Below are positions 1 to 28,669 of a stretch of DNA of 28,669 bases, one piece after another; position 1 is the first letter of the stretch, and each line of letters begins with the position of its first letter. The stretch lies in the IMG/VR virus record IMGVR_UViG_3300006802_000397, positions 1 to 28,669 of that record; one strand, 5' to 3'. Both the position numbers and the translations under genes were made by a program. The notes under the pieces were generated by a model, which did not search any database, was not told where the DNA came from, and saw nothing but the letters and a program-made list of their open reading frames with translations. Source of the stretch: a virus.

Positions 1-350
1 ACATTCAGTATGTATCAATCTGCATATGTTGCGCAACCAACACCGTGCAGTTTTGTGCATATATTTGGCCAGCCATCATCTTGGCATGGGTTCGACCTCA
101 TTGGGTTGGACGCGTCAACAGAAAATGCGGTATACATCAGACATGCCCAAGCTTCAGACATTCATTGTGAGGAAGATCCCGGCCAGCTTCCATGGATGGC
201 GTAGCCGTGCGCCACTGACTGACCGGCTGAGAGCCAATGCAGTGGCTGAAGACTTCCCAGACTTGGTGGCTGAGGGGATCAGTGGCGCCATATATGTGGA
301 GGCCATCTCTGCATATAGTGGGCGCAATCATGCAGATGGCTCACCAATGC
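1..350. repeat. Left terminal overlap, allele of 28320-28669
   Basis: These 350 bases align without gaps to the last 350 bases of the window. I count 21 mismatches. Fifteen lie in the first 94 bases (the control region) and six in the coding part from 125. Four of the coding differences are silent third-position changes; one adjacent pair (242-243) changes Val to Lys. The exact length match says the contig wraps around a circular or circularly permuted genome of about 28,319 bp. The mismatches say the two ends come from different variants rather than from one exact terminal repeat. Confidence 0.85.
7..36 (-). promoter_or_regulatory. Variant copy of the conserved early promoter, site A
   Basis: Read on the minus strand this is TTGCGC, 18 bases, CATACT, followed by GAATGT. 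It is the left-end allele of the promoter at 28326-28355 and, on the circular map, points into the minus-strand gene at 28068-28271. It differs from the other copies in the spacer, and bases 29-38 form the palindrome GTTGCGCAAC, absent from the right-end allele. The leader and start codon it would serve are cut off by the window edge. Confidence 0.6.
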
Positions 351-4651: not shown

Positions 4652-4888
4652 TCAGCCTTTGAACCAGCATGGCTCATCAGCAATCTCATCCCACTCATGC
4701 CGCATGGATTCAACCCATGCAGCCTCATCCTCTGGTGACATGTGGCCGTCATCCTCATCAGCCATGTCATTGATCATCTGCTCGATGGCCTCAGCCGAGT
4801 CAGCGTTGCACTCAATCTCCCAGAGGAAGGAAAAGTCATCTTCAGAGTGGGTCATGGTGTCGGTGCTGGTGTTGGTGTTGGTGAACAT
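4652..4888 (-). CDS. Small acidic protein, first gene of minus-strand early-type operon
   Basis: A 78-residue, very acidic protein (runs such as NDMADEDDGHMSPEDEAAW). The start at 4888 is preceded by the shared leader TCAGGAGACA; a second ATG at 4855 is possible. The longer ORF to 4990 runs through the promoter and is rejected. It is the promoter-proximal gene behind site B, so it is the likely main product of that transcript. Small size, acidity and the shared promoter and leader RNA fit an early host-directed or DNA-mimic protein, which is inference. No family recognised. Confidence 0.8.
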   Translation of the reverse strand: MFTNTNTSTDTMTHSEDDFSFLWEIECNADSAEAIEQMINDMADEDDGHMSPEDEAAWVESMRHEWDEIADEPCWFKG

Positions 4889-4900
4889 GTTGTCTCCTGA

Positions 4901-4930
4901 GTGATGGTGGCGGCTGTTGTTTCCACCCAC
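4901..4930 (-). ncRNA. 5' leader stem-loop, copy B
   Basis: On the minus strand the arms GTGGGTGG and CCACC-AT-CAC can pair with a two-base bulge, closing a loop rich in CAA. The 3' arm ends just before TCAGGAGACA. Compared with copies at 14375-14411 and 28285-28321, a C-G pair becomes T-A here, so the pairing is kept while the sequence changes. The stem starts at or near the expected transcript 5' end. Confidence 0.6.
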
Positions 4931-5020: not shown

Positions 5021-5050
5021 TTGGCATTGGCATGCAGTTTGTTACATGTA
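5021..5050 (+). promoter_or_regulatory. Degenerate forward copy of the early promoter, before HNH gene
   Basis: TTGGCA, 18 bases, CATGTA, with spacer ATGCAGTTTGTTA close to the conserved ATGCAGTTAGATA. It points toward the HNH gene at 5096, so 4889-5095 is a divergent control region. The intervening 56 bases are A-rich and contain ATGCAC and ATGCAG half-sites. Confidence 0.5.
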
Positions 5051-5095
5051 TGGAGTGGGGCGAAAAACCCAAAGCTGTCAAATCAGGAGACAACC

Positions 5096-5473
5096 ATGGG
5101 ACATACCAAGAACTGGATCAGAAAAGAAAAGCGCCTTGCCATCTATCTCAGAGATGGCTTGGCTTGTGCATATTGTGGAGCACACCAAGAGCAACCCGGT
5201 GTGATGTTGAGCCTTGATCACTTGGTTTGCCGCACTCATGGTGGCGGCAATGGCGAGGGAAACCTGATCACCGCATGCCATGCATGCAACACCCTACGCC
5301 GTGACATGCCTCTCTCTGAGTGGCTGATCAAGTCTTGTGGTGATGATGCAGCCAAGACGGCCCGATATATCACTGAGCACACTGGACTTGACTTGGCTCC
5401 ATACCGTGCCGAGGCCAACAAAATCATTGCCCGACGCATGGTTGACCGTGCCAAGAACACATCCAAGAAATGA
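5096..5473 (+). CDS. HNH endonuclease
   Basis: A 125-residue metal-dependent nuclease. Residues about 24-70 hold the HNH fold: CAYCG (first zinc pair), LSLDHLVCRTHGGGNGEGN with the DH pair and Asn, then CHACN (second zinc pair). The start at 5096 follows TCAGGAGACA; ORF starts further upstream run through the promoter. In tailed phages free-standing HNH nucleases either act with terminase in DNA packaging or are homing-type or host-DNA-cutting enzymes. Its location beside regulators, far from terminase, leaves this open. A strong 12-bp-arm hairpin follows the gene. Confidence 0.88.
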   Translation: MGHTKNWIRKEKRLAIYLRDGLACAYCGAHQEQPGVMLSLDHLVCRTHGGGNGEGNLITACHACNTLRRDMPLSEWLIKSCGDDAAKTARYITEHTGLDLAPYRAEANKIIARRMVDRAKNTSKK

Positions 5474-5482
5474 CCAACCATC

Positions 5483-5510
5483 CAGCCAGCATGGCCATCC
5501 ATGCTGGCTG
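5483..5510. terminator. Perfect hairpin after HNH gene
   Basis: Arms CAGCCAGCATGG and CCATGCTGGCTG (12 bp, perfect) around CCAT, starting nine bases after the HNH stop. Only TGTTATG follows, so it lacks a strong U-tract. It may be a weak terminator or a 3' stabiliser. Confidence 0.55.
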
Positions 5511-5514
5511 TGTT

Positions 5515-5530
5515 ATGCCACTTGTGGCAT
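5515..5530. promoter_or_regulatory. Candidate operator of the XRE regulator
   Basis: ATGCCAC-TT-GTGGCAT is a perfect 7-bp inverted repeat, 26 bases upstream of the start of the small XRE-type protein. Size and symmetry suit an HTH dimer, so autoregulation is a reasonable inference. Confidence 0.5.
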
Positions 5531-5556
5531 GTACCACAATACATCAGGAGACAAAC

Positions 5557-5766
5557 ATGCATCTCGGTGAACAAGTCAAGGCAGCAAGGGAAGCCAAGGG
5601 TGTTGGCATGTACACACTGGCCAGAGTCATCGGTGTGTCACCCCACACGATGATCAAGTTTGAGGCAGATGGCTGGCCAAGACGGCCAAGCATGATCCAA
5701 GACATTGCCGATCATCTTGGATGTGAGTTCTCCATCCACTTCAAGCCAGCCAACGGGGTACAATAG
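5557..5766 (+). CDS. Small XRE/Cro-type HTH regulator
   Basis: A 69-residue protein that is almost entirely a helix-turn-helix domain: LGEQVKAAREAKGVGMYTLARVIGVSPHTMIKFEADG, with the recognition helix around SPHTMIKFE. The start at 5557 follows TCAGGAGACA with four bases between; the ORF start at 5470 is not believed. Cro-sized single-domain proteins of this type bind operators as dimers, and a perfect palindrome lies just upstream at 5515-5530. A second XRE protein follows at 5909. No larger repressor is seen, so a lytic regulatory role is as likely as a lysogeny switch. Confidence 0.85.
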   Translation: MHLGEQVKAAREAKGVGMYTLARVIGVSPHTMIKFEADGWPRRPSMIQDIADHLGCEFSIHFKPANGVQ

Positions 5767-5785
5767 CCGGGCCGGCCGGCCGGCC
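5766..5785. repeat. GGCC-rich self-complementary tract
   Basis: A run of CCGG/GGCC units directly after the XRE stop, followed by CCTTGGCTGG and, at 5819-5831, CCAGCCGGTCA related to the dispersed element. The 142-base gap to the next gene (5767-5908) otherwise holds an orphan minus-strand copy of TCAGGAGACA at 5798-5807 with no start codon in range. Confidence 0.5.
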
Positions 5786-5908
5786 TTGGCTGGGGTTTGT
5801 CTCCTGACAGCCTTGGCCAGCCGGTCAGGTTTCCCCCGCTGTTGGTTCTTGCCCGTGCTCAAGGCAACCCTGCATCCACCAACACACCAATCCCACCATG
5901 GAGGCCAT

Positions 5909-6133
5909 ATGCCAAGACCATGGCCAGAGGTTCTCAAGGCTGAGAGGGAGGCTTGTGGCCTCTCTCTGCATGCAGCCGCCACCAAACTGGGGACACATCC
6001 AGACCATCTCAAAAAGGTTGAGGATGGTCACCGGAAAGTGGATCCACGCTTGCTGATCAATGCACTCCACTTGTATGGAGGATCGATCTTCAAGATGCAA
6101 CGTGCGCTCCACTACGAAAAAACCAACAAATAA
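5909..6133 (+). CDS. Second small XRE-type HTH protein
   Basis: A 74-residue protein with an HTH_XRE pattern: VLKAEREACGLSLHAAATKLGTHPDHLKKVEDGHRKVDPRLL, with the recognition helix around HPDHLKKVE. GGAGG lies five bases before the ATG at 5909; the ORF extension to 5705 overlaps the first regulator in another frame and is rejected. Two adjacent Cro-like proteins may form a bistable or sequential switch for the early and replication genes. The gene is followed at once by a hairpin (6136-6173). Confidence 0.82.
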   Translation: MPRPWPEVLKAEREACGLSLHAAATKLGTHPDHLKKVEDGHRKVDPRLLINALHLYGGSIFKMQRALHYEKTNK

Positions 6134-8822: not shown

Positions 8823-10148
8823 ATGGCTGGAAAAGTGATCAAGTTTCCAGCCATCAACCAAGAGCCACTTCCCACCAAACCCCCAGATGTGAGGCCACCA
8901 ACCTATGAGAGCATTGGTGTGCCACTTCCTGAGTTTGGCTTGGATGATGTGGACTGGGATCAAGAGACTGAGGGTCCTTTGTCATCGGCTGGCCAAGACT
9001 CGAGTGAGCCGATCTTGGGTCATTGTGTTGAGGCTGATCATAGCCATGACCACTGCTCAACTGATTCAAGGGACAAAATGGCCATCCGGTGTGATATTCC
9101 TGGCCATAGTCTGGATGTTTGTGTGGGCGTTGTTGGCTCCACATCCAGATCAATGGAGGGATTGAGTGATGCAGATGGACAAAAAATGGGCAATCAGGCT
9201 GGCATGGATGATCGGCGGAATGTGCGCCGGTGTGCTGATGGCGGAGAACGACGAGACGTTGACCCAGATGATGGAGATGTGTCCCGAGTGCGATTGCCAG
9301 CAAGCCGAGACGGTGGAAGCCGAGACCGAGGCCGAGACGGTGGAAGCCGAGCCAGAGACCGAGACGGTGGAAGCCGAGCCAGAGACCGAGACCGAGACGG
9401 TGGAAGCCGAGACGGAATGATCGATCCAGCCACCATCTTGGGTCTGCATTTCTCACCAAACCTGATGTGGTGGGAGATGCCAGCACATCCCATCCCATGC
9501 AGTTTTTGTGGGAAGCCTCAGTTTTGGTGGCTCTCGGTGGATCGTTATAGGCGGGTCCGAAAATCACCAGAGACCGAGCCGCCACCGGGCTGGGGTTATT
9601 GTGTTTGTGGGTATTGTGGGGGCTTACTGGCATTGGTGCTGAGGCCATGGCCAGACCATCCCACACCACCATATCTGATGGAGATCACACCAATGATGCT
9701 GAGACATACAGCCGTTCAATATCGGCTGGCTGATGATGAGAACACCAGAGAACCTCGGTGGAGGTCAGCTCAAGTCATCCGTCAAAGAGATGGTGGAGCA
9801 CTGGATCTGGCTGTCAATCTGGCCAGTGCCGATCCTGAATACCGTGAGCGGCTGGCCAAGTGCGCCGGCTTTGTCCAATATCGCTGTGAGGATCGTGGTG
9901 GTGAGCAGCAATGGAGAACTGCTTTGGTGGCTGATCGGCCTCATCCAGATGGATCATTGGATCTCACGGTACACTTGACCCTTGAAGATCAAAAGCTCCA
10001 AGGCAAGGCCTTCCAGAGGATAGCCGGCGCCACATATGGAGATGGTGTTGGCCAGTACCGTGAAAGCGGTTTGACCTATCCAGTCACATTGCTTGTGCAG
10101 GGTGCCTCCAGAGGCTCTGAGATTGGCATGTGGCTCCCAGTGAGCTGA
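8823..10148 (+). CDS. Long ORF: zinc-ribbon C-terminal domain, doubtful middle
   Basis: An uninterrupted 441-codon frame with GGAGG before ATG 8823. Residues 1-70 (MAGKVIKFPAINQEPLPTK) and 199-441 look like normal protein; the latter has CSFCG and CVCGYCG, a probable zinc ribbon, and beta-rich repeats LDLAVNLASADPEY and LDLTVHLTLEDQK. Residues about 75-198 are odd and Arg/Asp/Gly-rich (RDGGSRDR), and the +1 frame there holds two better-looking small membrane ORFs. The second of those ends in ATGA at 9417, where MIDPATILG would be a natural start for the C-terminal part. So either this is one protein overprinted by two others, or a base is missing near 9000-9045 and there are four coupled genes. 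No family recognised. Confidence 0.5.
   Translation: MAGKVIKFPAINQEPLPTKPPDVRPPTYESIGVPLPEFGLDDVDWDQETEGPLSSAGQDSSEPILGHCVEADHSHDHCSTDSRDKMAIRCDIPGHSLDVCVGVVGSTSRSMEGLSDADGQKMGNQAGMDDRRNVRRCADGGERRDVDPDDGDVSRVRLPASRDGGSRDRGRDGGSRARDRDGGSRARDRDRDGGSRDGMIDPATILGLHFSPNLMWWEMPAHPIPCSFCGKPQFWWLSVDRYRRVRKSPETEPPPGWGYCVCGYCGGLLALVLRPWPDHPTPPYLMEITPMMLRHTAVQYRLADDENTREPRWRSAQVIRQRDGGALDLAVNLASADPEYRERLAKCAGFVQYRCEDRGGEQQWRTALVADRPHPDGSLDLTVHLTLEDQKLQGKAFQRIAGATYGDGVGQYRESGLTYPVTLLVQGASRGSEIGMWLPVS
9046..9165 (+). CDS. Nested small membrane protein
   Basis: A 39-residue ORF in the +1 frame relative to 8823-10148. It has a strong transmembrane helix (SGVIFLAIVWMFVWALL) and a short polar end (APHPDQWRD). 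A GAGG lies about 12 bases before the ATG. Its stop sits three bases before the start of the next ORF in the same frame, and that ORF's GGAGGG lies inside its end. In this compact genome such spacing looks like real gene structure. It could be a holin-like or exclusion peptide. The competing frame is also open, so confidence is limited. Confidence 0.45.
   Translation: MTTAQLIQGTKWPSGVIFLAIVWMFVWALLAPHPDQWRD
9169..9420 (+). CDS. Membrane-anchored protein with acidic repeat tail
   Basis: An 83-residue ORF with GGAGGG eight bases before the ATG at 9169. Residues about 4-24 (KKWAIRLAWMIGGMCAGVL) are a positively flanked transmembrane or signal-anchor segment with a Cys. It is followed by CPECDC and then tandem ETVEAE repeats to the end. 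The stop overlaps ATG 9417 (ATGA). Signal anchor, Cys cluster and acidic repeats could be a lipoprotein-like or spanin-like protein. The same DNA also encodes an Arg/Asp/Gly repeat in the long frame, so which frame is used needs protein data. Confidence 0.5.
   Translation: MQMDKKWAIRLAWMIGGMCAGVLMAENDETLTQMMEMCPECDCQQAETVEAETEAETVEAEPETETVEAEPETETETVEAETE
9304..9416 (+). repeat. Imperfect tandem repeat ACGGTGGAAGCCGAG with GAGACC units
   Basis: Four copies of ACGGTGGAAGCCGAG separated by variable numbers of GAGACC or GAGCCA. In one frame they give Glu-Thr-Val-Glu-Ala-Glu and in the other Arg-Asp-Gly-Gly-Ser. All units are multiples of three, which fits selection or expansion in a translated frame. 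Confidence 0.75.
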
Positions 10149-12343: not shown

Positions 12344-12798
12344 TGGCCCGGCCTCCAGAGATCACACCAGAGATGGTCAAACTGGCCAGAGAGGCCATGA
12401 GACTTGGCATGACCAATCAGTTGGCCTCTCAGTATATTGGGATCTCTGAGTCCTCGTTTTACCGCTATCTTGCTCGAGGTCAGAACGAACAAGGGACGAT
12501 CTATAGACGGTTCTGGGATGCCATCTCACAGGGAAGATCTCAATGTGCAGCCATGCAGTTGGCAAGGATCCAGCATGCTGCACAAGAGGACTGGAGAGCG
12601 GCTGCATGGGTCATGGAGCGCCGGTTTGGCTACCATAGGCAACTTGATATCAGAGGGGAGATTGCGCAGACCGAGTCTCTGAGGCTGGGGGATGGCCAAG
12701 ACCTGGATCGGCTCTTGGAGCGCATTGATCACACGGCTCAGATTCGTGAGCAGTTGATCAGCGCTGTCTATCATGAGGAAGATCAAGAGGATGAATGA
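12343..12798 (+). CDS. terS: Terminase small subunit
   Basis: A 151-residue DNA-recognition subunit of the packaging motor. Residues about 5-45 carry an HTH (MVKLAREAMRLGMTNQLASQYIG, then ISESSFYRYLARG). It is followed by a helical region (EDWRAAAWVMERRFGYHRQ) common in TerS proteins, and an acidic C-terminus that may contact TerL. GGGAGG lies seven bases before the ATG, which overlaps the methyltransferase stop by one base. It also overlaps the TerL frame. Confidence 0.85.
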   Translation: MARPPEITPEMVKLAREAMRLGMTNQLASQYIGISESSFYRYLARGQNEQGTIYRRFWDAISQGRSQCAAMQLARIQHAAQEDWRAAAWVMERRFGYHRQLDIRGEIAQTESLRLGDGQDLDRLLERIDHTAQIREQLISAVYHEEDQEDE

Positions 12799-14311
12799 TC
12801 CGGCCGGCCAGCCGGTCAGTGTGCCTCAAGATCCAGATCAAGCCAGATGGCTTCTCACCGAGCATCTCCAAGACCTTGACGATCTTGAGCGGCTGGCCAC
12901 TGCATATCCCATGGCCTTTGCCAGATTGTGGCGGCCACACTGCACCAGATGGGATGGCAACACCAGCCGCCCAAAAGGGTGTGGCCATGAGATGACTCCA
13001 GTGGATGGAGTGCGCGGATCTTTCTGTTGCCAAAATCAAACATGTGAAATGTACGGCCAACCCGAGAAACGCACAAGCCAGAGAGACACCGTCGCCGAGT
13101 TGCTCCAGACCAAGAGGCTTGTGGCATACATGATCGGTGGTGCCAACCGAGCGGGCAAAAGTGAGTCAGCCATTCAACTGGCCATTGCCTTGGCGGCTGG
13201 CTCTGGAGAGTGGTGGGTGAGACGATGGTGTCAACTCAATGGCATCAACCCAGAGGCCATCCCAGCCGAGCCGGCCACCAATGATCGAGCCGTCATCATC
13301 TCGGCTCTGACCTTCAATGACTCCCTGGAGTATCACAGGCCAAAGTTGGATCGGTGGCTACCGGCCGGTAGCCAGAGAAGAAAGTGGAAGGCAGTGGATC
13401 AAGCCGAGTGCATCCTTCCCAATGGTGGCCGGATCGTGTGCAAAGCAGCCGCTCAAGGTCGGGAAAAGTTCCAAGGCAATGCACCGAGAGCAGCGATCTT
13501 GGATGAGGAACATCCAGAGGATGTGTATGAGGAGATCAGCCGTGGTCTGGCTGAGACCGATGGTCTGGCCATCCTCAGCATGACTCCCCTCAAGGGTCTA
13601 ACATGGGCTTTCAATCGGTTTGTACATGACCCTCCACCTGGTCATATGTATGCCCGGATCACTGGTTTGGATAATCCACATGTAAAGTCCAGAGGTCTCT
13701 TGGCTCGGTTCTCACATCTTGAGCCTCACAAAAGAGATGCTCGGTTGTATGGAAAGTTTGCCAGAGCCAGAGGCTTGATCTACCCATCACTGGATCGTGC
13801 GCTCCATGTGGTCAACCCAACCCCGATCCCAGATGAGTGGAGGAAGTTCCGGGCCATAGATTTTGGTTTCAACTTTGGCTGCTTGTGGGCTGCTCTCAAC
13901 CCTGATCTGGATCAGGTTGTGATCTACCGTGAGTTGCTCACTCAGGATGTGAAGTTGTCAGCCAATGCAAGGCAGATCAAGAACCTCTCTGGCACTGAGT
14001 CCTTTGCATGGACAGTGGCTGATCCGGCTGACCGTGAGGGGAGGATCATGCTGGCCAGAGACCATGAGATCCACACCACACCAGCCAGAAAAGATGTTGA
14101 GGCTGGGATTGATGCAGTGGCTGAACGGCTGGCCATATGCCAGCAAGGTCATCCAAGGCTCATCATCCACTCAACATGTGTGGAGTTGCTCAGGGAGTTG
14201 AACCTATACCGGCGCCGGCCAGATGGAACCATACACAAAGAGGCTGACCATTTGGCAGATTGCCTCAGGTATCTGGTGTACTGGATGAAAGTGCAGCCGT
14301 CTTGGATCTAA
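12773..14311 (+). CDS. terL: Terminase large subunit (ATPase/nuclease)
   Basis: A 512-residue packaging motor. GGANRAGKSES holds Walker A (Lys129), AAILDEEHP holds Walker B (acidic pair near 244-246), SMTPLKG is the coupling motif, and FRAIDFGFNFG (Asp363) begins the RNase H-like nuclease domain, with further acidic residues toward the C-terminus (HLADCLRYL). Starts at 12773 and 12791 are both possible and neither has a well-spaced Shine-Dalgarno. The first residues after 12791 (NDPAGQPVS) are encoded by the dispersed GC element, so the N-terminus looks recently altered. A CPxHC-like region near residues 70-90 (GCGHEM, CCQNQTC) suggests an N-terminal zinc site. Confidence 0.93.
   Translation: MRKIKRMNDPAGQPVSVPQDPDQARWLLTEHLQDLDDLERLATAYPMAFARLWRPHCTRWDGNTSRPKGCGHEMTPVDGVRGSFCCQNQTCEMYGQPEKRTSQRDTVAELLQTKRLVAYMIGGANRAGKSESAIQLAIALAAGSGEWWVRRWCQLNGINPEAIPAEPATNDRAVIISALTFNDSLEYHRPKLDRWLPAGSQRRKWKAVDQAECILPNGGRIVCKAAAQGREKFQGNAPRAAILDEEHPEDVYEEISRGLAETDGLAILSMTPLKGLTWAFNRFVHDPPPGHMYARITGLDNPHVKSRGLLARFSHLEPHKRDARLYGKFARARGLIYPSLDRALHVVNPTPIPDEWRKFRAIDFGFNFGCLWAALNPDLDQVVIYRELLTQDVKLSANARQIKNLSGTESFAWTVADPADREGRIMLARDHEIHTTPARKDVEAGIDAVAERLAICQQGHPRLIIHSTCVELLRELNLYRRRPDGTIHKEADHLADCLRYLVYWMKVQPSWI
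12800..12818. repeat. Dispersed GC element at the N-terminus of terL
   Basis: CCGGCCGGCCAGCCGGTCA begins two bases after the terS stop and encodes PAGQPVS at the start of TerL. It lies at the terS/terL junction, where a hairpin would affect coupled translation. Confidence 0.8.
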
Positions 14312-14317
14312 AAAACA

Positions 14318-14331
14318 TGCAGAAAACTGCA
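14318..14331. promoter_or_regulatory. Palindrome TGCAG-AAAA-CTGCA, candidate operator
   Basis: A perfect 5-bp inverted repeat with a 4-base centre, nine bases upstream of the -35 at 14341. The same palindrome occurs at 28366-28379 upstream of promoter D, with TTTT in the centre. Further TGCA half-sites (14342-14345, 14353-14356) continue through the promoter. Confidence 0.55.
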
Positions 14332-14340
14332 CAGAAACAC

Positions 14341-14370
14341 TTGCACATTATATGCAGTTAGATACATACT
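14341..14370 (+). promoter_or_regulatory. Conserved early promoter, site C
   Basis: TTGCAC, 18 bases, CATACT, followed by GAATGTAGG. The core from 14353 to 14376 is the reverse complement of sequence at 28320-28343 and at 4929-4952. It starts the 14424-14960 transcript. TACATA with a 16-base spacer is an overlapping alternative -10. Confidence 0.75.
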
Positions 14371-14374
14371 GAAT

Positions 14375-14411
14375 GTAGGCGGCAACAACAACCAACATCA
14401 ACCCCGCCTAC
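14375..14411 (+). ncRNA. 5' leader stem-loop, copy C
   Basis: Arms GTAGGCGG (14375-14382) and CCGCCTAC (14404-14411) pair perfectly over 8 bp around an unpaired-looking loop of CAA repeats. AGGAGA starts two bases after the stem. Copy D has GTGGGCGG/CCGCCCAC, an A-T to G-C exchange on both sides. The 5' arm lies where transcription should begin, so the stem would be at the very 5' end of the mRNA. Confidence 0.7.
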
Positions 14412-14423
14412 TCAGGAGACACC

Positions 14424-14591
14424 ATGATTGGACAAGTTGAACTCAACAGCGGCGCCGTGACCCTCTTCGCTTCCAAGAAAGAAGCAATGGCTGTAGCATT
14501 CCAGATGCTCTTGGATGGATACACGCCCCAAGTGTTTGAGCGTACCATTGAACTCGGGCCACAAACCATCACCATGTGGTTTGTTCTCTGA
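14424..14591 (+). CDS. Small hypothetical protein behind promoter C
   Basis: A 55-residue protein beginning MIGQVELNSGAVTLFASKK and ending QTITMWFVL. It has an N-terminal strand pattern, a helix (KKEAMAVAFQMLLDGY) and a C-terminal strand, so probably a small folded domain. The leader TCAGGAGACA is three bases before the ATG. It is the first gene of a two-gene transcript between terL and the twin terminators, under the same promoter type as the 4888 and 28271 genes. No family recognised. Confidence 0.75.
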   Translation: MIGQVELNSGAVTLFASKKEAMAVAFQMLLDGYTPQVFERTIELGPQTITMWFVL

Positions 14592-14624
14592 TAACCACCA
14601 ACCCACCCACTCAGGAGACAAACC

Positions 14625-14960
14625 ATGCACTTTGAAGCCATTGAAGCTACCTGCTATCTCATTGCACAAATCACCGTTCGAGATGGCTGGCATCCTGACA
14701 ATCGAAAATTCACGCAGATGAGGGTCAGACAGAGAATGGAGGAGTTGATGAGCATTCTGGAAATTGACATGGTAGTAGCAAACAAAAGACTGCTGCTTAG
14801 TCCAGAATCTGTCAATACTGACTCAGTCAAGCATGCGGTGAGGTCTCTTGTCTACATGCAGCAAAAGTTTGCTGGGTTGATGGATACAGACATTGAACCG
14901 ATCTTGGCTGTTGTGCTCCAAAATCTGGGCATTGCCAAGGCCGGGCCAGTTGAGTTGTAA
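14625..14960 (+). CDS. Hypothetical protein, AT-richer than its neighbours
   Basis: A 111-residue, mostly helical protein (MRVRQRMEELMSILEIDMVV, then DSVKHAVRSLVYMQQKFAGL). The leader TCAGGAGACA lies four bases before the ATG. Its codons include CTT, AGT, GTA and AAA runs uncommon elsewhere in this genome, and base composition is visibly more AT-rich, which suggests recent acquisition. It ends 27 bases before a strong terminator, so the transcript from promoter C carries only this gene and the one before it. No family recognised. Confidence 0.78.
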   Translation: MHFEAIEATCYLIAQITVRDGWHPDNRKFTQMRVRQRMEELMSILEIDMVVANKRLLLSPESVNTDSVKHAVRSLVYMQQKFAGLMDTDIEPILAVVLQNLGIAKAGPVEL

Positions 14961-14987
14961 AGCAAGCCAATCCACTTGAGACTCATC

Positions 14988-15017
14988 CCCCAGCCACATC
15001 GGCTGGGGTTTCTATTT
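14988..15017 (+). terminator. Rho-independent terminator of the site C operon
   Basis: CCCCAGCC-ACATC-GGCTGGGG followed by TTTCTATTT, a textbook 8-bp stem with a U-rich tail, 27 bases after the 14625-14960 stop. It separates the small operon from the structural genes. Confidence 0.85.
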
Positions 15018-15035: not shown

Positions 15036-15058
15036 CCAGCCGATGTGGCTGGTTTTTT
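15036..15058 (+). terminator. Second terminator, exact reverse complement of the first
   Basis: CCAGCC-GATGT-GGCTGG followed by TTTTTT. The 17-base hairpin is the exact reverse complement of 14990-15006, so the two could alternatively pair with each other in one long stem across CAACAACTGTTG. This gives two mutually exclusive folds. Confidence 0.8.
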
Positions 15059-15086
15059 GCTTGTTTGATCCCTGTTCTGGTATGTT
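15057..15086 (+). promoter_or_regulatory. Possible late promoter for the structural operon
   Basis: TTGCTT, 18 bases, TATGTT immediately after the twin terminators and 41 bases before the portal start. The -35 overlaps the U-tract of the second terminator. It resembles a sigma-70 promoter only moderately; it is proposed because the long downstream operon needs a start here or read-through. Confidence 0.35.
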
Positions 15087-15126
15087 GCTCTTGACCTTGC
15101 AACCCACCGGCGGTAATCGGCAACCA

Positions 15127-17697
15127 ATGGCAGACAAGAAAAGACCGACTGTGGCCGAGAGGCTCAATGATGGATGGCGCTGGCTCATCCGTCGGCTGAC
15201 CATTGTTGAGCAGCCAGAACAGATCACATATGGTGGCGCATGGGATCGTGAGCAGCCAGCCTCACCAGCCTATCCAGTGGTCAACTCCATGAGTGCCTTT
15301 GGGAAGTTCCCATGGGTCTATGCAGCCGTGGAAGCCGTTGCCAATGACATCAGTGGCCTACCCATTGGAGTCCAGAGAACGGTTGGAAGCCGCTCCAGAA
15401 CAGTGCCAGAGCATCCAATGATGAGGCTTCTCAAGCGGCCAAGCCACCGAGTTGGTGCAACCCTTTGGCGCCGGCAGATGCTTGTGGATCTGCTCTTGTG
15501 CGGCAACTTTTTTGGTCTGGTGCTTGGCCGTGGAGCCTCAGTCACTTCAGTGGTCAGGCTGCATCCAGAGCATGTCAAGATCATCCCCGCCACTGATGGG
15601 TCGGTGCTGGCCTATCGGTTCGATCAAGATGGAACCTTTACTGATTACAGCCCCGATGATGTGATCCACATACGGCAGACCTCTTGGAGAGATGGTGTGG
15701 ATGGGCTGTATGGTCAGGGTGCCATTGAGGTTCTCCAGACTGAACTTGGTGGAGAGTATGCAGCCTCTCAGAGATGGAGAACCGAGGCCGGCCGTGGCCA
15801 GCCGAGCATGACCATCAGCCCAAAGGGTGACATGCCGATCCCTGGGGATGTGATGGCCAAGTTGGTCAACGCAGTCCAGAGAAACATTGAGTCCACTGGA
15901 GTGGTGCCTATCAATGGCCCGGTGGATGTGAACTTGCTTCCCTTCAATGCAAGAGACATGGAGTTCACAAGTGCAAGGGATTGGACTCGAGCAAGTGTCC
16001 TGGCCGTGGTGGGTGTGGCATATGTTCGGCTTTTCTTGCCATCGGCAAACTTTGCCACTGCTCAACAGCAAAACCGGATCTATTGGCAAAACCTGCTCGG
16101 TCTGATCGCCTTGGTTGAGGATGGCTTGACCAAGATTGCACAACGAATGGGGACGGTCTCTGATCGTGTGGTCCATGACACATCTGGTGTTGATGCACTC
16201 CAAGAGAGCCGCACTGACAGAATGAACCGAGCGGCCATGTTGGTTGAGAAGTTTGGACTCAACCCACTGGATGCACTCCAAGTGGAAGGGTTCACCGAGA
16301 TTGATCCCAACATGATCCAGGAACCGGCCGGCCAGCCGGTTGAGCCTGCTCAGGTTGCGCAACACACATCCCCTCCCATGCTCAGGATCGTGACCAACGA
16401 TCCACAAGAGAGCCAGACCAAGGCACGGCCAGCCGTGCGCTATCGCACTGGAAGGGATGAGAAGGTTTGTGAGATCTGCGCTCCACTGGATGGCCGCGTG
16501 TTTGCCATCAGATCTGATGGGAGCCATGCTGGTCCTGAGTTGCCTCGGCATGAAAACTGCCGGTGTTACTATGAGGGAACCACCACCAAGGCCATGGATG
16601 AGGATCAGGAACTTCAGACCAAGCCCACTCCAGCCAAGTATGATCACATTGACTTCACTCCCACCAAGGGAATGGTGGCCGAGGCCAAGAGAGCAGTGGC
16701 ATGGATTGAGGAAGGCTTGGCCGGTGATGGCATGACCCAAGGGACCAAGGTCTGGGCAACTCGAGTGGCCAATGGTGGGGACATTACTTTTGAGAAGGCC
16801 AAGCGAATGAGAGCATGGTTTGCCCGGCATGAGTCAGACAAAGACGGCGAAGGGTTCAACCCTGGAGAACCGGGTTACCCATCGGCTGGCCGTGTGGCAT
16901 GGGCTGCATGGTTTGGTGATGCTGGCCAAGTCTGGGCTGAGAAGGTTGGCCGGCAGATGGATGCAGCCGATCAAGCAAAATCAATCGGCATGCTGGCCGC
17001 TAAGGATGGAGGGGAGATGACACACCGTTTGGGTCTTGTGCTCAAGAGGATGGCCATGGATGATGATCAGCCTGATGAGTTGATCCAATCTCGGTTCAAG
17101 TTCATTGCTTCCACTGCAGATGTTGATCGCATGGGAGACATTGTTGAGCAGTCATGGAGGCTGGATGCCTTCAAGAGCAATCCAGTGATCCTCTGGAACC
17201 ACGATAGCAGCCGGCCACCGATTGCCAAGGCTCTGGATGTGGATGTGCAAAATGGTCAGCTATTGATTGAGATGGAGTTTGACATGGCTGATCCTTTCGC
17301 GGCTGAGGTTGCTGGCAAACTGCAGCGCGGCTTTCTCAATGCTGGGTCTGTTGGGTTCTTCCCTGGATCTGTTGCCTATCGGTCAGATCTTCCCAAGTCC
17401 GATCCACGCTACTCAGAGAGCAGCATGGGCATTGTTGCCTCCAACAATGAACTGGTTGAGTTCAGCATCACCCCGATCCCAGCCAATGCCGGCGCATTGT
17501 TAGCGGCCAGTGCTGGCCAGCCAGATGACCAGCAGATCCGTGAGATGCTGGCCAACCCGGTCACACGCCGGCGTATCCATGCCATGATTGGTGATGACAC
17601 CAACACCAAAACAACCAGCCATGCAGACTCTCTCTCATGGCTGAGAGACAACCAACCGGCGGCCACTGGTCTGCCATTTCTGAAGGAGTCCGAATAA
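15127..17697 (+). CDS. Portal / MuF-like / prohead protease fusion protein
   Basis: An 856-residue polyprotein. Residues about 40-410 are an HK97-type portal (PVVNSMSAFGKFPWVYAAVEAVANDISGLP; later YWQNLLGLIALVEDGLTK). Residues about 437-485 hold a MuF/gp7-like zinc pattern (CEICAPLDG, then RHENCRCYYEG). Residues about 500-620 contain KRMRAWFARHESDK and YPSAGRVAWAAWFGD, a domain often linked to phage head genes. Residues about 650-800 are an S78-type prohead protease with catalytic His692 (LWNHDSS) and Ser741 (NAGSVGF), ending ELVEFSITPIPANAGA. The start at 15127 avoids the terminators read through by the longer ORF. Portal, minor head protein and protease are usually separate, so cleavage may release them. 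Confidence 0.88.
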   Translation: MADKKRPTVAERLNDGWRWLIRRLTIVEQPEQITYGGAWDREQPASPAYPVVNSMSAFGKFPWVYAAVEAVANDISGLPIGVQRTVGSRSRTVPEHPMMRLLKRPSHRVGATLWRRQMLVDLLLCGNFFGLVLGRGASVTSVVRLHPEHVKIIPATDGSVLAYRFDQDGTFTDYSPDDVIHIRQTSWRDGVDGLYGQGAIEVLQTELGGEYAASQRWRTEAGRGQPSMTISPKGDMPIPGDVMAKLVNAVQRNIESTGVVPINGPVDVNLLPFNARDMEFTSARDWTRASVLAVVGVAYVRLFLPSANFATAQQQNRIYWQNLLGLIALVEDGLTKIAQRMGTVSDRVVHDTSGVDALQESRTDRMNRAAMLVEKFGLNPLDALQVEGFTEIDPNMIQEPAGQPVEPAQVAQHTSPPMLRIVTNDPQESQTKARPAVRYRTGRDEKVCEICAPLDGRVFAIRSDGSHAGPELPRHENCRCYYEGTTTKAMDEDQELQTKPTPAKYDHIDFTPTKGMVAEAKRAVAWIEEGLAGDGMTQGTKVWATRVANGGDITFEKAKRMRAWFARHESDKDGEGFNPGEPGYPSAGRVAWAAWFGDAGQVWAEKVGRQMDAADQAKSIGMLAAKDGGEMTHRLGLVLKRMAMDDDQPDELIQSRFKFIASTADVDRMGDIVEQSWRLDAFKSNPVILWNHDSSRPPIAKALDVDVQNGQLLIEMEFDMADPFAAEVAGKLQRGFLNAGSVGFFPGSVAYRSDLPKSDPRYSESSMGIVASNNELVEFSITPIPANAGALLAASAGQPDDQQIREMLANPVTRRRIHAMIGDDTNTKTTSHADSLSWLRDNQPAATGLPFLKESE
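16323..16340. repeat. Dispersed GC element inside the portal fusion gene
   Basis: ACCGGCCGGCCAGCCGGT, read as PAGQP in the linker between the portal and the MuF-like region. Its position in a linker suggests an insertion tolerated between domains. Confidence 0.8.
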
Positions 17698-19187
17698 TGT
17701 TCGGCAATGAAATGAAAGGGCTGGAAGTGCCGGCCCAAATCACCGAGACCACACTTCGCGAGCATCTCAAAGAGGCTGCAGCCGTCTTGACTCGCACGGC
17801 TGGAGACTCAGCCGCGACCTCCAAGGCAGTTGAGGATCTCTCTGGCAAACTGCAGGGTCTCATGGAAGCCCAAGCACGGCCAGCCGTGCGCTCGGTTGAG
17901 GGTGCCTCTGATCGTGAGCTGGTTCACCGCTATTGTGATGAGACCGGCCGTATCCATCTAAAGTCCAACACACGTCGCCTCAAGTTCGGTGGCCGCACTG
18001 CAGAGATTGACCAACCAGGGCTTTTGGATGACAAAACGATCCTGACCGATTGGCAAGCAGACCTGCAAAAAGCAGTTGAGCGCCGGTCTCTGGTTCGTCT
18101 TGTGGCCAAGAACAATGATACTCCGCGCACCGATGCAGAGATCCTCCAGATCCTCCATCGTGCTCCCAGTGGGATCCGTGGCCAGATTGAGAAGGCCATC
18201 ACTGATTCTGCTGGCTCTGGTGCTGAGTGGATCCCTGATGGAACTTTCCCCAGCATCTATGAGGAGTTCCAAGTTCCCAATGCAGTGGCTGCACTTTTCG
18301 GCACCATTGACATGCCAAATGCAACCATGCTGCAGCCGAGCCTGACCACCGGCGTACGTCCTTACAAGCGTAATGCAATCTCCAGTGATGACCCTGCTAA
18401 CTACACCGGCAGCACACCGGTGAGCAGTGAGACCACCATCAGTGTGGCAAACTGGGCCGTGCGCGTGGTCTATGACGAGATGGATGCTGAGGATGCAGTG
18501 GTGGCCATGGAGCCTCTGGTGCGCCGGCTTGTCGTTGACGCTCTCAATGACGGCTATGAGGATTGCATGATCAATGGTGACACCAACGCAACTCATCAGG
18601 ATGCTATTTCAAGTTGGAATATCCGAAGCCGCTGGGGTGCATCTGGCCTCGGTGGAGCGGCTGATCATCGCCGGATCTTCCTTGGTCTCCGTGCTCTGGC
18701 TGCAGACCGCTCCCAGACCATTGACATGGGATCGGCTCAGACCGTCACGGGTCTGATGACGGATCTGGTTGGTGGCATGGGAGAGCGTGCAGCCTCTCAA
18801 CTGGCCATCATCGTCAGCCCAGAAGTGTTCTATCAAAAGCTCTTGGCTGACAGCAATGTCTTGACCCTTGACAAGCTTGGCACCGGCGCCTCTCTGCTGA
18901 GTGGCCAGTTGGCCAGTGTGTTTGGTCACCCGATCATTGTGAGCCGCTACCTCTCGGCAGATCTGGCCGCCACTGGTCTTTACACCGGCTCTGGTGCTCT
19001 CTCTGGTGTGCTGGCCGTTGACCGCTCGGCATTCTACCACTACCAACGCCGAGGCGCCTTGGTGGAACTTGAGCGCGACATCAAGACCGGTGGAACCCAT
19101 GTGGTGGCCACATTGCGCCGGACTTTCCGCACTGTGTCTGGTGCCTCTGAGGCCGTGGCACGGTTTGGATACAACTGGCTCTCCTGA
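17697..19187 (+). CDS. Major capsid protein, HK97 fold, with N-terminal delta domain
   Basis: A 496-residue protein. Residues about 10-120 are helical and charged (TTLREHLKEAAAVLTRTAG, VEDLSGKLQGLMEAQ), the scaffold-like delta domain normally removed by the prohead protease encoded just upstream. Residues about 140-496 have the HK97 capsid pattern (FGTIDMPNATM; VVYDEMDAEDAVVAME; LAIIVSPEVFYQKLLADS; FGHPIIVSRYLS; FYHYQRRGALVELERDI). AGGAG lies nine bases before the ATG, which overlaps the portal stop (TAATG). A GC hairpin follows the gene and may stabilise the capsid message. Confidence 0.93.
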   Translation: MFGNEMKGLEVPAQITETTLREHLKEAAAVLTRTAGDSAATSKAVEDLSGKLQGLMEAQARPAVRSVEGASDRELVHRYCDETGRIHLKSNTRRLKFGGRTAEIDQPGLLDDKTILTDWQADLQKAVERRSLVRLVAKNNDTPRTDAEILQILHRAPSGIRGQIEKAITDSAGSGAEWIPDGTFPSIYEEFQVPNAVAALFGTIDMPNATMLQPSLTTGVRPYKRNAISSDDPANYTGSTPVSSETTISVANWAVRVVYDEMDAEDAVVAMEPLVRRLVVDALNDGYEDCMINGDTNATHQDAISSWNIRSRWGASGLGGAADHRRIFLGLRALAADRSQTIDMGSAQTVTGLMTDLVGGMGERAASQLAIIVSPEVFYQKLLADSNVLTLDKLGTGASLLSGQLASVFGHPIIVSRYLSADLAATGLYTGSGALSGVLAVDRSAFYHYQRRGALVELERDIKTGGTHVVATLRRTFRTVSGASEAVARFGYNWLS

Positions 19188-23805: not shown

Positions 23806-25595
23806 TGACTGTGTATCGGAACACGATTGAAACTGAGACCAGTGGCAGTGTGCAAAGCCTCAATCGGCTATCCAATGCGGCTGAGAGCACCACTGACCGT
23901 GTGGCAAGGCTGGATCGGCAGGCTGATCAACTTGGTGAACGTGCCGGCAAAACGGCCAGTGCGGCTGGCATGCTCGGTGGTGTGCTTGGCCGTATCAATC
24001 CAGAGTTTGAGGAAGGGGCCAGGGTTGTTGCTGACCTTGCTGATGGCTTGGATGTGGCCAGCATGATGGGAGGAAGGATGCTGGCCATATTGGGGCCAGT
24101 TGGTGTGGCAGCTGGTGTGGCGGCTGGAGCCTATCTGATCCTCAAGAACAATCTGGATGCAGCCAATGCAGCCATGGAGCAAGCGGCTGAGAAAGCCAAT
24201 AGGATGGTGGATGTACATAGGAAAGTCAAAGAGGCTGCACTTTTAGCCGCACTGGCCGAGGGTGAGATCACTCAGGAGCGGTTTGACTCCATTGTAGCTG
24301 CTCAAAATGCTGCCGATGTATACCGCGATCTACAGACTGCTCAGAGAGAGCAACTCGAAACGGCTCAAGATGAACTTGACCAGATGACGGCCAGCCGAGA
24401 TGCCTTGAGGGACTACCTAAGAGAAAGACGGCAAAACCATCAAGATACTGAAAGTTTTATTAATCTTTTCAGCCAAGAGATTGCACAACTTCAAGCATAC
24501 AACAGCCGCATTGATGAGTTGACACACAAGAGAAATGCTGAGGCCACTGCTCTTGGCAATCTCAATGTTGCACAGGCCAACTATGCCAGATCACTTGAGA
24601 CCATTGCCACTGCACAGCATGCAACCACACAAGCCCACACGGCTGCATCATCTGCAGTCTCTGAGTTGGCTGAGGAAGTGTTTGGGCTGGCTGAGGCATT
24701 TGAGGCTCTTGGGTTTGCCGCTCCTGGAGATGACTTGGTTGGGATTGGCATTGATCTCAATGCTCCACTGACCGAAATGAACACCAATCTCACTCAGGGT
24801 CTGGATCTGCTTTCAAGGCAGATAGAAGTGAGGCAAAGGCTGGCTGAGTTGGCTGAGAGATCAGCTGCAGCAACCGAGGCCGAGAGACAAGCACTCATCA
24901 GCCAAAGAGTTGCCTCAGTTGAAACAGCTGGAGCCGCGATCCAAGTGGCCGGCGGCAATCTTGGAGCTGTTCAAGGCTTGCTCCCAGCCGGTGGTGCTGC
25001 AGCTGCTATGGCCAATCCGATCCTTGGTGTGCTGGCTGGCCTTGAGCAGATTGGCTCCATGGGTTCTGAGGGTGTGGAGGAAAGGCTTGACATGATGCTT
25101 GAGAACATCTCTGCAGGCATCAGAGCACTCCCAAGCATCTTGATTGATGTGATCCCAGAGTTTGTGTTTGCTCTGGTTACGGAACTCCCAGCCGCTCTGG
25201 CCGATGCCATTGCCGAGGTCTTTAGACGGCTGCTCAACCTGATCCCAGGGGTTGACATAAAGGAACCCGGTGCACCACCATCAACCGTCAACGAGGCCGT
25301 GTACCAACAACTTGAGCAGATCCGTGAGACTCAAGAGCAGCAAGCAGTGGGCTTGGTTGGAGCCACCACCACAAGTGCATCAAGATCGGCTGCAGCCAGC
25401 ACCAGAGGAAGGATGGAGAGAGCCGATGGAGCCACACGGCTGGCCATGAGCCGGGCACCAACTTCCACCATGTTTGGAAGTGGCGCCACCATCATCCAGC
25501 AAGCACTTGGCTTTGATAGTGGATCACAAGATCGGTTCCAACGTCGGTTCAGTCAGTTGACCAACTCTGAGACCGGCTTGAGAGGGAGAGCATAA
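23805..25595 (+). CDS. Tape measure protein
   Basis: A 596-residue, mostly helical protein starting TGATG-coupled. Residues about 20-60 and 120-350 are coiled-coil-like (QLETAQDELDQMTASRDALRDYLRERR). Hydrophobic segments at about 90-115 (MLAILGPVGVAAGVAAGAYLIL) and 440-485 (IDVIPEFVFALVTELP, LLNLIPGV) are typical of tape measure proteins that cross the host membrane during DNA entry. At about 1.5 angstrom per residue it predicts a tail near 90 nm. It is the longest gene after the chaperones, as expected. Confidence 0.9.
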   Translation: MTVYRNTIETETSGSVQSLNRLSNAAESTTDRVARLDRQADQLGERAGKTASAAGMLGGVLGRINPEFEEGARVVADLADGLDVASMMGGRMLAILGPVGVAAGVAAGAYLILKNNLDAANAAMEQAAEKANRMVDVHRKVKEAALLAALAEGEITQERFDSIVAAQNAADVYRDLQTAQREQLETAQDELDQMTASRDALRDYLRERRQNHQDTESFINLFSQEIAQLQAYNSRIDELTHKRNAEATALGNLNVAQANYARSLETIATAQHATTQAHTAASSAVSELAEEVFGLAEAFEALGFAAPGDDLVGIGIDLNAPLTEMNTNLTQGLDLLSRQIEVRQRLAELAERSAAATEAERQALISQRVASVETAGAAIQVAGGNLGAVQGLLPAGGAAAAMANPILGVLAGLEQIGSMGSEGVEERLDMMLENISAGIRALPSILIDVIPEFVFALVTELPAALADAIAEVFRRLLNLIPGVDIKEPGAPPSTVNEAVYQQLEQIRETQEQQAVGLVGATTTSASRSAAASTRGRMERADGATRLAMSRAPTSTMFGSGATIIQQALGFDSGSQDRFQRRFSQLTNSETGLRGRA

Positions 25596-28067: not shown

Positions 28068-28271
28068 TTAGCAGCCTTTTTCCCATGCTTGCACAACTTC
28101 AATCCAATAGCTGTCCCTTTTGTTGGCCTCAGCCAAGCACCAGAACTCATAATCTCTCAGATCACATCCAGAGCGTTGGCCATAGTGTGCAAGGCTGCAC
28201 AACATTTCAAGGTCATCCATGGTGGCCTCAGTGGTGTCAAAGCCGAGCTGGTTAGCGGTTTCGATCAGCAT
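28068..28271 (-). CDS. Small acidic protein behind promoter D
   Basis: A 67-residue protein (MLIETANQLGFDTTEATMDD) with three Cys and several Trp/Tyr, predicted helical, acidic in the first third. TCAGGAGACA lies four bases before the ATG. It is the only gene on the transcript from promoter D and ends before the minus-strand terminator at 28021-28040. It shares promoter and leader with the 4888 and 14424 genes but has no clear sequence similarity to them. No family recognised. Confidence 0.78.
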   Translation of the reverse strand: MLIETANQLGFDTTEATMDDLEMLCSLAHYGQRSGCDLRDYEFWCLAEANKRDSYWIEVVQAWEKGC

Positions 28272-28284
28272 GGTTGTCTCCTGA

Positions 28285-28321
28285 GTGGGCGGGGTTGGTG
28301 TTGGTTGTTGTTGCCGCCCAC
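28285..28321 (-). ncRNA. 5' leader stem-loop, copy D
   Basis: On the minus strand, GTGGGCGG (28321-28314) and CCGCCCAC (28292-28285) pair perfectly around a CAA-rich loop, directly before TCAGGAGACA. It is the partner of copies B and C, with a compensatory change at the third pair relative to C. Confidence 0.7.
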
Positions 28322-28355: not shown

Positions 28356-28443
28356 GTGTTTCTCTGCAGTTTTCTGCATATATTTGACCAGCCATCATCT
28401 TGGCATGGGTTGAACCTCATTGGGTTGGACGCGTCAACAGAAA

Positions 28444-28669
28444 ATGCGGTATACATCAGACATGCCCAAACTTCAGACATTCATTGTGAGGAAGATCCCG
28501 GCCAGTTTCCATGGATGGCGTAGCCGTGCACCACTGACTGATCGGCTGAGAGCCAATGCAAAGGCTGAAGACTTCCCAGACTTGGTGGCTGAGGGGATCA
28601 GTGGCGCCATATATGTGGAGGCCATCTCTGCATATAGTGGGCGCAATCATGCAGATGGCTCACCAATGC
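28444..28669 (+). CDS. 5' part of the first lysis-cluster gene, second allele
   Basis: The same frame as 125-388, open to the window edge and lacking its 3' end. Relative to the left copy it carries four silent third-position changes and one Val-to-Lys replacement. This pattern of differences supports the frame being a real gene and shows that two viral variants contributed to the contig. Confidence 0.65.
   Translation, partial: MRYTSDMPKLQTFIVRKIPASFHGWRSRAPLTDRLRANAKAEDFPDLVAEGISGAIYVEAISAYSGRNHADGSPM

What the first reader, a model, noticed from the sequence alone, without database searches (positions are those of the whole stretch)
14375..14411. Covarying 5'-terminal leader stem directly before the ribosome site (copies B, C, D)
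The stem arms are GTAGGCGG/CCGCCTAC at 14375-14411, GTGGGCGG/CCGCCCAC at 28321-28285 (minus) and GTGGGTGG/CCACC-AT-CAC at 4930-4901 (minus). Two pair positions change on both sides (A-T to G-C, C-G to T-A), so pairing rather than sequence is conserved. The loop is CAA-rich and open. The 3' arm ends two bases before AGGAGA, and the 5' arm sits at the expected transcript start. It could protect the mRNA 5' end, present the ribosome site, or bind a protein. I know of no named family matching it.
Basis: seen in the sequence. Interest (0 to 1): 0.85.

Follow-up and report, generated by a model that had tools for sequence, protein, structure and literature searches.

The report
Phage mRNA start hairpin before RBS
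Several small genes of an uncultured phage start with a messenger RNA whose predicted very first bases fold into a hairpin just before the ribosome site; the hairpin is kept in related phages although its sequence changes, so it most likely shields the message from decay and keeps the ribosome site free, a known type of device in a setting where I found no earlier description.

Summary
The stem is real and at the stated coordinates. It lies in a 28.7-kb uncultured tailed-phage record. The three window copies alone are weak evidence: B and C are a recent duplication, and D is bulged and folds no better than its shuffles. Related phage contigs decide the matter. Ten promoter-leader-RBS units from four phages of one clade share -35 / 16-17 bp / TACATA-like -10, then a hairpin, then CAGGAGAC and ATG. 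In 7 of 10 the first paired base is the predicted +1. Hairpin sequences differ almost completely, but arms pair with their own partner better than with swapped arms (38 of 100,000 permutations). Dinucleotide shuffles give combined p=3e-11. Homologous leader pairs show double compensatory changes. Loops share no sequence or length. A conserved RNA shape, not a DNA operator or sequence-specific protein site, fits best. Most likely function: 5'-end protection plus ribosome-site insulation, as in ompA-type leaders. B sits in a moron cassette (promoter, leader, two genes, terminator) absent from a relative with 99%-identical terminase. No Rfam match. The closest described phage feature, SAS/ESAS of Cluster K mycobacteriophages, lacks arm covariation according to its authors. 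Start sites, RNA structure, function and host are unproven.

The parts
14318..14331 (+). dyad TGCAGAAAACTGCA upstream of promoter B (possible operator; similar sites at 46 and 28365)
   Evidence: function inferred only
14341..14368 (+). promoter B: TTGCAC (14341-14346), 16 bp, TACATA (14363-14368); 22-bp block 14354-14375 identical in B, C and D
   Evidence: not called by a strict consensus scan
14375..14411 (+). leader hairpin B, 8 bp GTAGGCGG/CCGCCTAC, 21-nt loop, first paired base = predicted +1 (14375)
14414..14419 (+). Shine-Dalgarno AGGAGA of gene B, ATG at 14424
14424..14591 (+). gene B, 55 aa, no family
14625..14960 (+). second gene of the B cassette, 111 aa, no family; its RBS region repeats the 3'-arm-like ACCCACCCACTCAGGAGACAA without the 5' arm
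14988..15008 (+). terminator closing the B cassette; a second one at 15036-15052 has a counterpart in the L007 empty site
28285..28321 (-). leader hairpin C, GTGGGCGG/CCGCCCAC, predicted +1 at 28321; -10 TACATA 28333-28328, -35 TTGCAC 28355-28350
28068..28271 (-). gene C, 67 aa, no family
4901..4930 (-). leader hairpin D, GTGGGTGG/CCACC-AT-CAC with a 2-nt bulge, predicted +1 at 4930; -35-like TTGCTT 4964-4959, -10 TACATA 4942-4937
4652..4888 (-). gene D, 78 aa acidic protein, orthologues in G001 and G003
5021..5071 (+). fourth unit, divergent from D: TTGGCA-16-TACATG promoter, predicted +1 at 5055, hairpin TGGG 5056-5059 / CCCA 5068-5071, SD 5085, drives the HNH gene
5096..5473 (+). HNH endonuclease gene read from the fourth unit (ORF also listed from 4901)
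1..23 (-). truncated copy A of the promoter block; with 46-345 it repeats 28365-28664 at 97%, so probably the same locus as C at the record's other end

Best explanation
It is a 5'-terminal RNA hairpin that forms the front of a portable promoter-leader-RBS unit of one clade of uncultured tailed phages. Transcription is predicted to start 7 nt after a TACATA-like -10, on the first base of the stem, so the mRNA 5' end is base-paired. The hairpin ends 1-12 nt before CAGGAGAC. Shown by computation: the layout, the maintenance of pairing with replaced sequence, and the moron-like cassette around B. Inferred: (1) the paired 5' end slows pyrophosphate removal and 5'-end-dependent attack by RNase E or RNase J type enzymes; (2) folding the leader on itself keeps it from pairing with the SD, so these small-gene messages are long-lived and translated well wherever the cassette lands.
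For: Ten units in four phages of one clade (window, G001, G003, G004) share promoter, hairpin, CAGGAGAC and ATG. Promoters ranked by -35/-10 score alone, with a gene nearby: the top seven are these units, and all ten rank in the top 13. First paired base is the predicted +1 in 7 of 10; background windows with dG <= -8 and pairing from +1 or +2 are 10%. Own arms beat swapped arms in all but 38 of 100,000 permutations, 70 of 100,000 without C; dinucleotide shuffles give Fisher p 3e-11, 6e-10 without C. Compensatory changes: B/C A-U to G-C, and orthologous G003/G004 plus-strand leaders G-C to A-U without gaps; C/D C-G to U-A, and window/G001 HNH leaders U-A to C-G, read from the sequences. Two U-G pairs in the G003 stem suit RNA, not a DNA palindrome. 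Loops of 4-21 nt have no common sequence, which argues for shape only. RBSs of CAGGAGA type elsewhere also tend to follow hairpins (mean z -1.2, 18 sites) unlike other AGGAG sites (-0.07, 14 sites). The E. coli ompA stabilising leader works through a nonspecific stem-loop plus the RBS (text of PMC7148126).
Against: No start site is mapped, and the promoter is not a strict consensus match. D, the window HNH leader and both G001 leaders are individually no better than shuffles (p 0.08-0.16), and in the G001 leaders pairing starts at +6 to +8, which protects a 5' end less well. The G003/G004 HNH and G003 D leaders instead carry ATGCTTGGGAGGCAT around the SD, with no stable separate hairpin. The SD is not predicted to be fully open in any leader, which is weak support for the insulation part. 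More distant relatives lack the layout. Pair 6-19 of the G004 plus-strand stem is a C-C mismatch. Protection and insulation were not measured, and the host and its RNases are unknown.
Confidence: 0.6

Rival explanations
1. The inverted repeat is a DNA operator at the start site for a phage repressor or activator, as the authors suggest for the ESAS repeats of Cluster K mycobacteriophages.
For: Position just after the promoter; HTH genes at 5470-5766 and 5705-6133; ESAS precedent (PMC3203893).
Against: Arm sequences share no half-site between units (GTGGGCGG, GTGGTTGGC, CGGGG, CAAGTTG); arms covary; U-G pairs break DNA symmetry. A better operator candidate, TGCAGAAAACTGCA, lies upstream of the promoters of B and C.
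Confidence: 0.1
2. The hairpin is a translational operator bound by a phage or host protein near the SD, repressing or activating these small genes.
For: Hairpin next to the SD, as in known phage translational operators (general knowledge).
Against: No conserved loop or bulge sequence; stem length about 4-11 bp and loop length 4-21 nt vary freely.
Confidence: 0.1
3. The hairpin acts on transcription: initial pausing, attenuation or antitermination (put-like RNA).
For: It is predicted to be the first RNA made; put-like antitermination RNAs are near the 5' end (general knowledge).
Against: No U-tract after the hairpin; the B cassette is short and ends in its own terminators; no conserved sequence; no Rfam match.
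Confidence: 0.07
4. The arms are a by-product of a duplicated promoter-RBS cassette with a G-rich start and a C-rich RBS flank; pairing has no role.
For: B and C are recent duplicates; D alone is not better than shuffles; the second gene of the B cassette has the same 3'-arm-like sequence without the 5' arm.
Against: Leaders of unrelated sequence in G003/G004 pair strongly; swapped-arm and shuffle tests; gap-free compensatory change.
Confidence: 0.13

Closest known systems
5'-terminal stabilising stem-loops of bacterial mRNAs (E. coli ompA and papA leaders, B. subtilis aprE leader)
   Same: Stem-loop at or near the 5' end followed by a strong RBS; nonspecific stem sequence (PMC7148126 text; titles in the reference list of PMC3997798).
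   Different: Here in a phage clade, repeated as a portable unit with a shared promoter, and with compensatory replacement between copies; stabilisation not measured.
T7 gene 10 leader (from general knowledge)
   Same: Phage leader with a short hairpin at the very 5' end and an RBS downstream.
   Different: T7 uses its own polymerase promoter and a longer leader; here the promoter looks like a -35/-10 type and I noticed no phage RNA polymerase gene in the proteins examined.
SAS/ESAS of Cluster K mycobacteriophages; start-linked repeats of Microbacterium phage clusters EF and EG (PMC3203893, PMC7302621)
   Same: Conserved RBS-containing sequence with an inverted repeat just upstream at many small genes.
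   Different: ESAS repeats share a consensus and their departures do not support RNA pairing, so the authors prefer a DNA-binding site. Here sequences differ and pairing is kept. RBS consensus differs (CAGGAGAC against GGGATAGGAGCCC).
Phage morons
   Same: The B cassette has its own promoter, genes and terminator and is missing from a close relative (L007).
   Different: Carries the hairpin leader as part of the expression unit.

Membership tests
Stabilising 5'-terminal stem-loop leader (ompA/papA kind) | Stem-loop within a few nt of the transcript 5' end | tested here: met
   First paired base = predicted +1 in 7 of 10 leaders, +2 in one, +6/+8 in two; rests on predicted starts
Stabilising 5'-terminal stem-loop leader (ompA/papA kind) | Pairing, not sequence, matters | tested here: met
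   Swapped-arm test and compensatory changes
Stabilising 5'-terminal stem-loop leader (ompA/papA kind) | Longer mRNA half-life that depends on the stem | not testable with these tools
   Needs decay measurements
SAS/ESAS (Cluster K mycobacteriophages) | 13-bp GGGATAGGAGCCC at the RBS | tested here: not met
   RBS is TCAGGAGACAAC or similar
SAS/ESAS (Cluster K mycobacteriophages) | 17-bp inverted repeats with a shared consensus | tested here: not met
   Arms share no consensus across units
Phage moron | Autonomous gene with own promoter and terminator, absent from close relatives | tested here: met
   L007 (terminase 99% identical) lacks the cassette at about 14310-15010; terminator at 14988-15008; promoter predicted only
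Any Rfam family | Covariance-model match | tested here: not met
   None at gathering level for the window, none up to E 5 for 14250-14500
Intrinsic terminator or attenuator | Stem followed by a U-tract | tested here: not met
   Stem is followed by the SD; no terminator is called there on the + strand

The most novel reading that the evidence does not exclude
A phage clade uses a sequence-free, shape-only 5' cap of RNA as a standard front end for gene cassettes that it gains and loses, so that any newly acquired gene gets a message resistant to 5'-end-dependent decay in the host.
Probability: 0.3. Interest if true: 0.6.

Novelty: new variant of a known kind. Interest (0 to 1): 0.45.

Why it matters
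If right, it is a natural 5'-terminal hairpin in which selection has kept the fold and let the sequence go, a cleaner case than the few classic cellular leaders. It would also separate start-linked inverted repeats that act as RNA from those of other phages that were read as DNA sites, and it gives a simple test: does arm covariation predict mRNA protection?

Tried and rejected
Rfam search: nothing. RNAalifold on a MAFFT alignment of ten leaders: no structure, because the arms do not align by sequence; for that reason I used arm swapping and gap-free homologous pairs, and did not build a covariance model. Gapped promoter-RBS pattern over viral contigs: only the known clade plus four chance hits without a real hairpin. 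More distant relatives (G012, G013, G014, L011, L017, L018, L020, L036, L037, L059): layout not found. Protein family searches for the small genes: no family. Host: only a 46-48% capsid relative in one Acidimicrobiaceae MAG contig, the one match among 395 genomes of its class, and no close isolate, so no host is claimed. A further relative scan with the G003/G004 minus-strand protein gave no new phage. I first read the ATGCTTGGGAGGCAT leaders as the same hairpin type; folding does not support that.

Full report
What is there. The window is a virus record of 28,669 bases with terminase-like (12773-14311), portal (15043-17697) and capsid (17637-19187) genes, that is, a tailed phage. They form the downstream end of a larger repeat: the 22 bases GCAGTTAGATACATACTGAATG are identical at 14354 (+), 28342 (-) and 4951 (-), with a fourth, truncated and slightly different copy at 23 (-).

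How good are the three copies alone? Modest. B and C are 93% identical over 111 nt, so they are a recent duplication differing in the stem by one compensatory A-U to G-C pair. D adds C-G to U-A but has a two-base bulge, and folds no better than its shuffles (p 0.16), against 0.0005 for B and 0.004 for C.

Relatives decide it. Terminase, portal, capsid and HNH proteins brought related contigs. In G001 (IMGVR 3300043015_001826), G003 (3300031957_003354) and G004 (3300044724_006477) I found six further units of the same layout, and a fourth in the window at 5021-5096, divergent from D. The -35 boxes are TTGACA, TTGACG, TTTACA, TTGCAC and the like; the spacer is 16 bp (17 in one); the -10 is TACATA in seven, and TACATG, TATTAA and TATAAT in one each. 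The 7th base after the -10, the usual start, is the first base of the stem in seven of ten. Examples: G003 GTGGTTGGC-AGTCAA-GCCGGCCAC, G004 GTGGC-c-AGCT-ATCG-AGCT-c-GCCAC, G004 minus AAGTTGCAGCG-AATCAC-CGCTgtTCAACTT.

Tests. A ranking of promoters by -35 and -10 alone, requiring only an RBS and gene downstream, puts these units in the first seven places and all ten within the first 13; two of the remaining three are the G003/G004 HNH promoters described below. Shuffling each leader keeping dinucleotides gives a combined p of 3e-11 (6e-10 without C); six leaders are significant singly, four (D, window HNH, both G001) are not. Pairing each 5' half with the 3' half of another leader gives weaker duplexes: the own-arm total of -129 kcal/mol is reached in 38 of 100,000 permutations (mean -98), 70 of 100,000 without C. 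In the gap-free orthologous pair G003/G004 (downstream proteins 86% identical) one stem pair changes on both sides (G-C to A-U), one changes from U-G to C-G, and one is lost. The window and G001 HNH leaders (82% identical proteins) change the closing pair from U-A to C-G, read directly from the sequences.

Limits. G003 and G004 use a different leader at their HNH genes, and G003 also at its D gene: ATGCTTGGGAGGCAT around the SD, just after a predicted start; this does not fold into a convincing separate hairpin. More distant relatives do not show the layout. RNAalifold on a sequence alignment finds nothing, because the arms cannot be aligned by sequence. No start site is mapped. The promoter definition is mine and was made after seeing the first units, although without reference to the hairpins.

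Setting. The B unit opens a cassette: a dyad TGCAGAAAACTGCA, promoter, hairpin, a 55-aa and a 111-aa gene, and a terminator (14988-15008). In L007, whose terminase is 99% identical, the whole cassette is absent and the terminase end is followed directly by a terminator like that at 15036-15052. It is thus a moron by structure. CAGGAGA-type RBSs at other genes also tend to follow hairpins, often the GGCCGGCC repeats (mean z -1.2 over 18 sites), whereas other AGGAG sites do not (-0.07 over 14). The genes driven by the units have no known family apart from the HNH gene.

Mechanism. The fold is kept while arms, loop sequence, loop length and even stem length change. This leaves roles that need only a structure: covering the mRNA 5' end, and folding the leader away from the ribosome site. 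A nonspecific stem-loop plus RBS is how the ompA leader is described as prolonging mRNA life (PMC7148126). I put about 0.6 on 5'-end protection combined with RBS insulation, and about 0.85 on the weaker statement that the RNA hairpin is maintained by selection.

Known or new. Rfam has no match. The nearest phage description is the SAS/ESAS system of Cluster K mycobacteriophages: an RBS-like 13-mer with upstream 17-bp inverted repeats. Its authors report that departures in the two arms do not generally support RNA pairing and favour DNA-binding sites (PMC3203893); similar start-linked repeats occur in Microbacterium phages (PMC7302621). The present element differs exactly on that point. I rate it a new variant of a known kind.

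Noticed in passing
window 46-345 and 28365-28664: The two ends of the record repeat each other over 300 bp at 97% identity, so the record probably wraps around a genome of about 28.3 kb assembled from two strains; copies A and C are then one locus.
   Followed up: partly
window 2297, 10717, 12795, 16319, 20830, 23041, 28017, 4616, 19198: Many GC-rich GGCCGGCC...CCGGTC inverted repeats, several at gene ends or just before CAGGAGA ribosome sites, also in relatives.
   Followed up: partly
window 46, 14318, 28365; G003 25021: Dyad TGCAGAAAACTGCA-like sites upstream of these promoters, a candidate operator for the phage's HTH proteins (5470-5766, 5705-6133).
   Followed up: partly
G003 24650-25150 and G004 1-80: At the HNH genes, and at the G003 D gene, the leader is replaced by ATGCTTGGGAGGCAT, with the ribosome site inside a short inverted repeat at the predicted start.
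   Followed up: partly
window 14593-14620: The second gene of the B cassette has the same ACCCACCCACTCAGGAGACAA sequence before its start but no matching 5' arm.
   Followed up: no
window 9305-9412: 27-bp direct repeats inside a coding stretch that reads as an arginine/aspartate/glycine-rich repeat in one frame.
   Followed up: no
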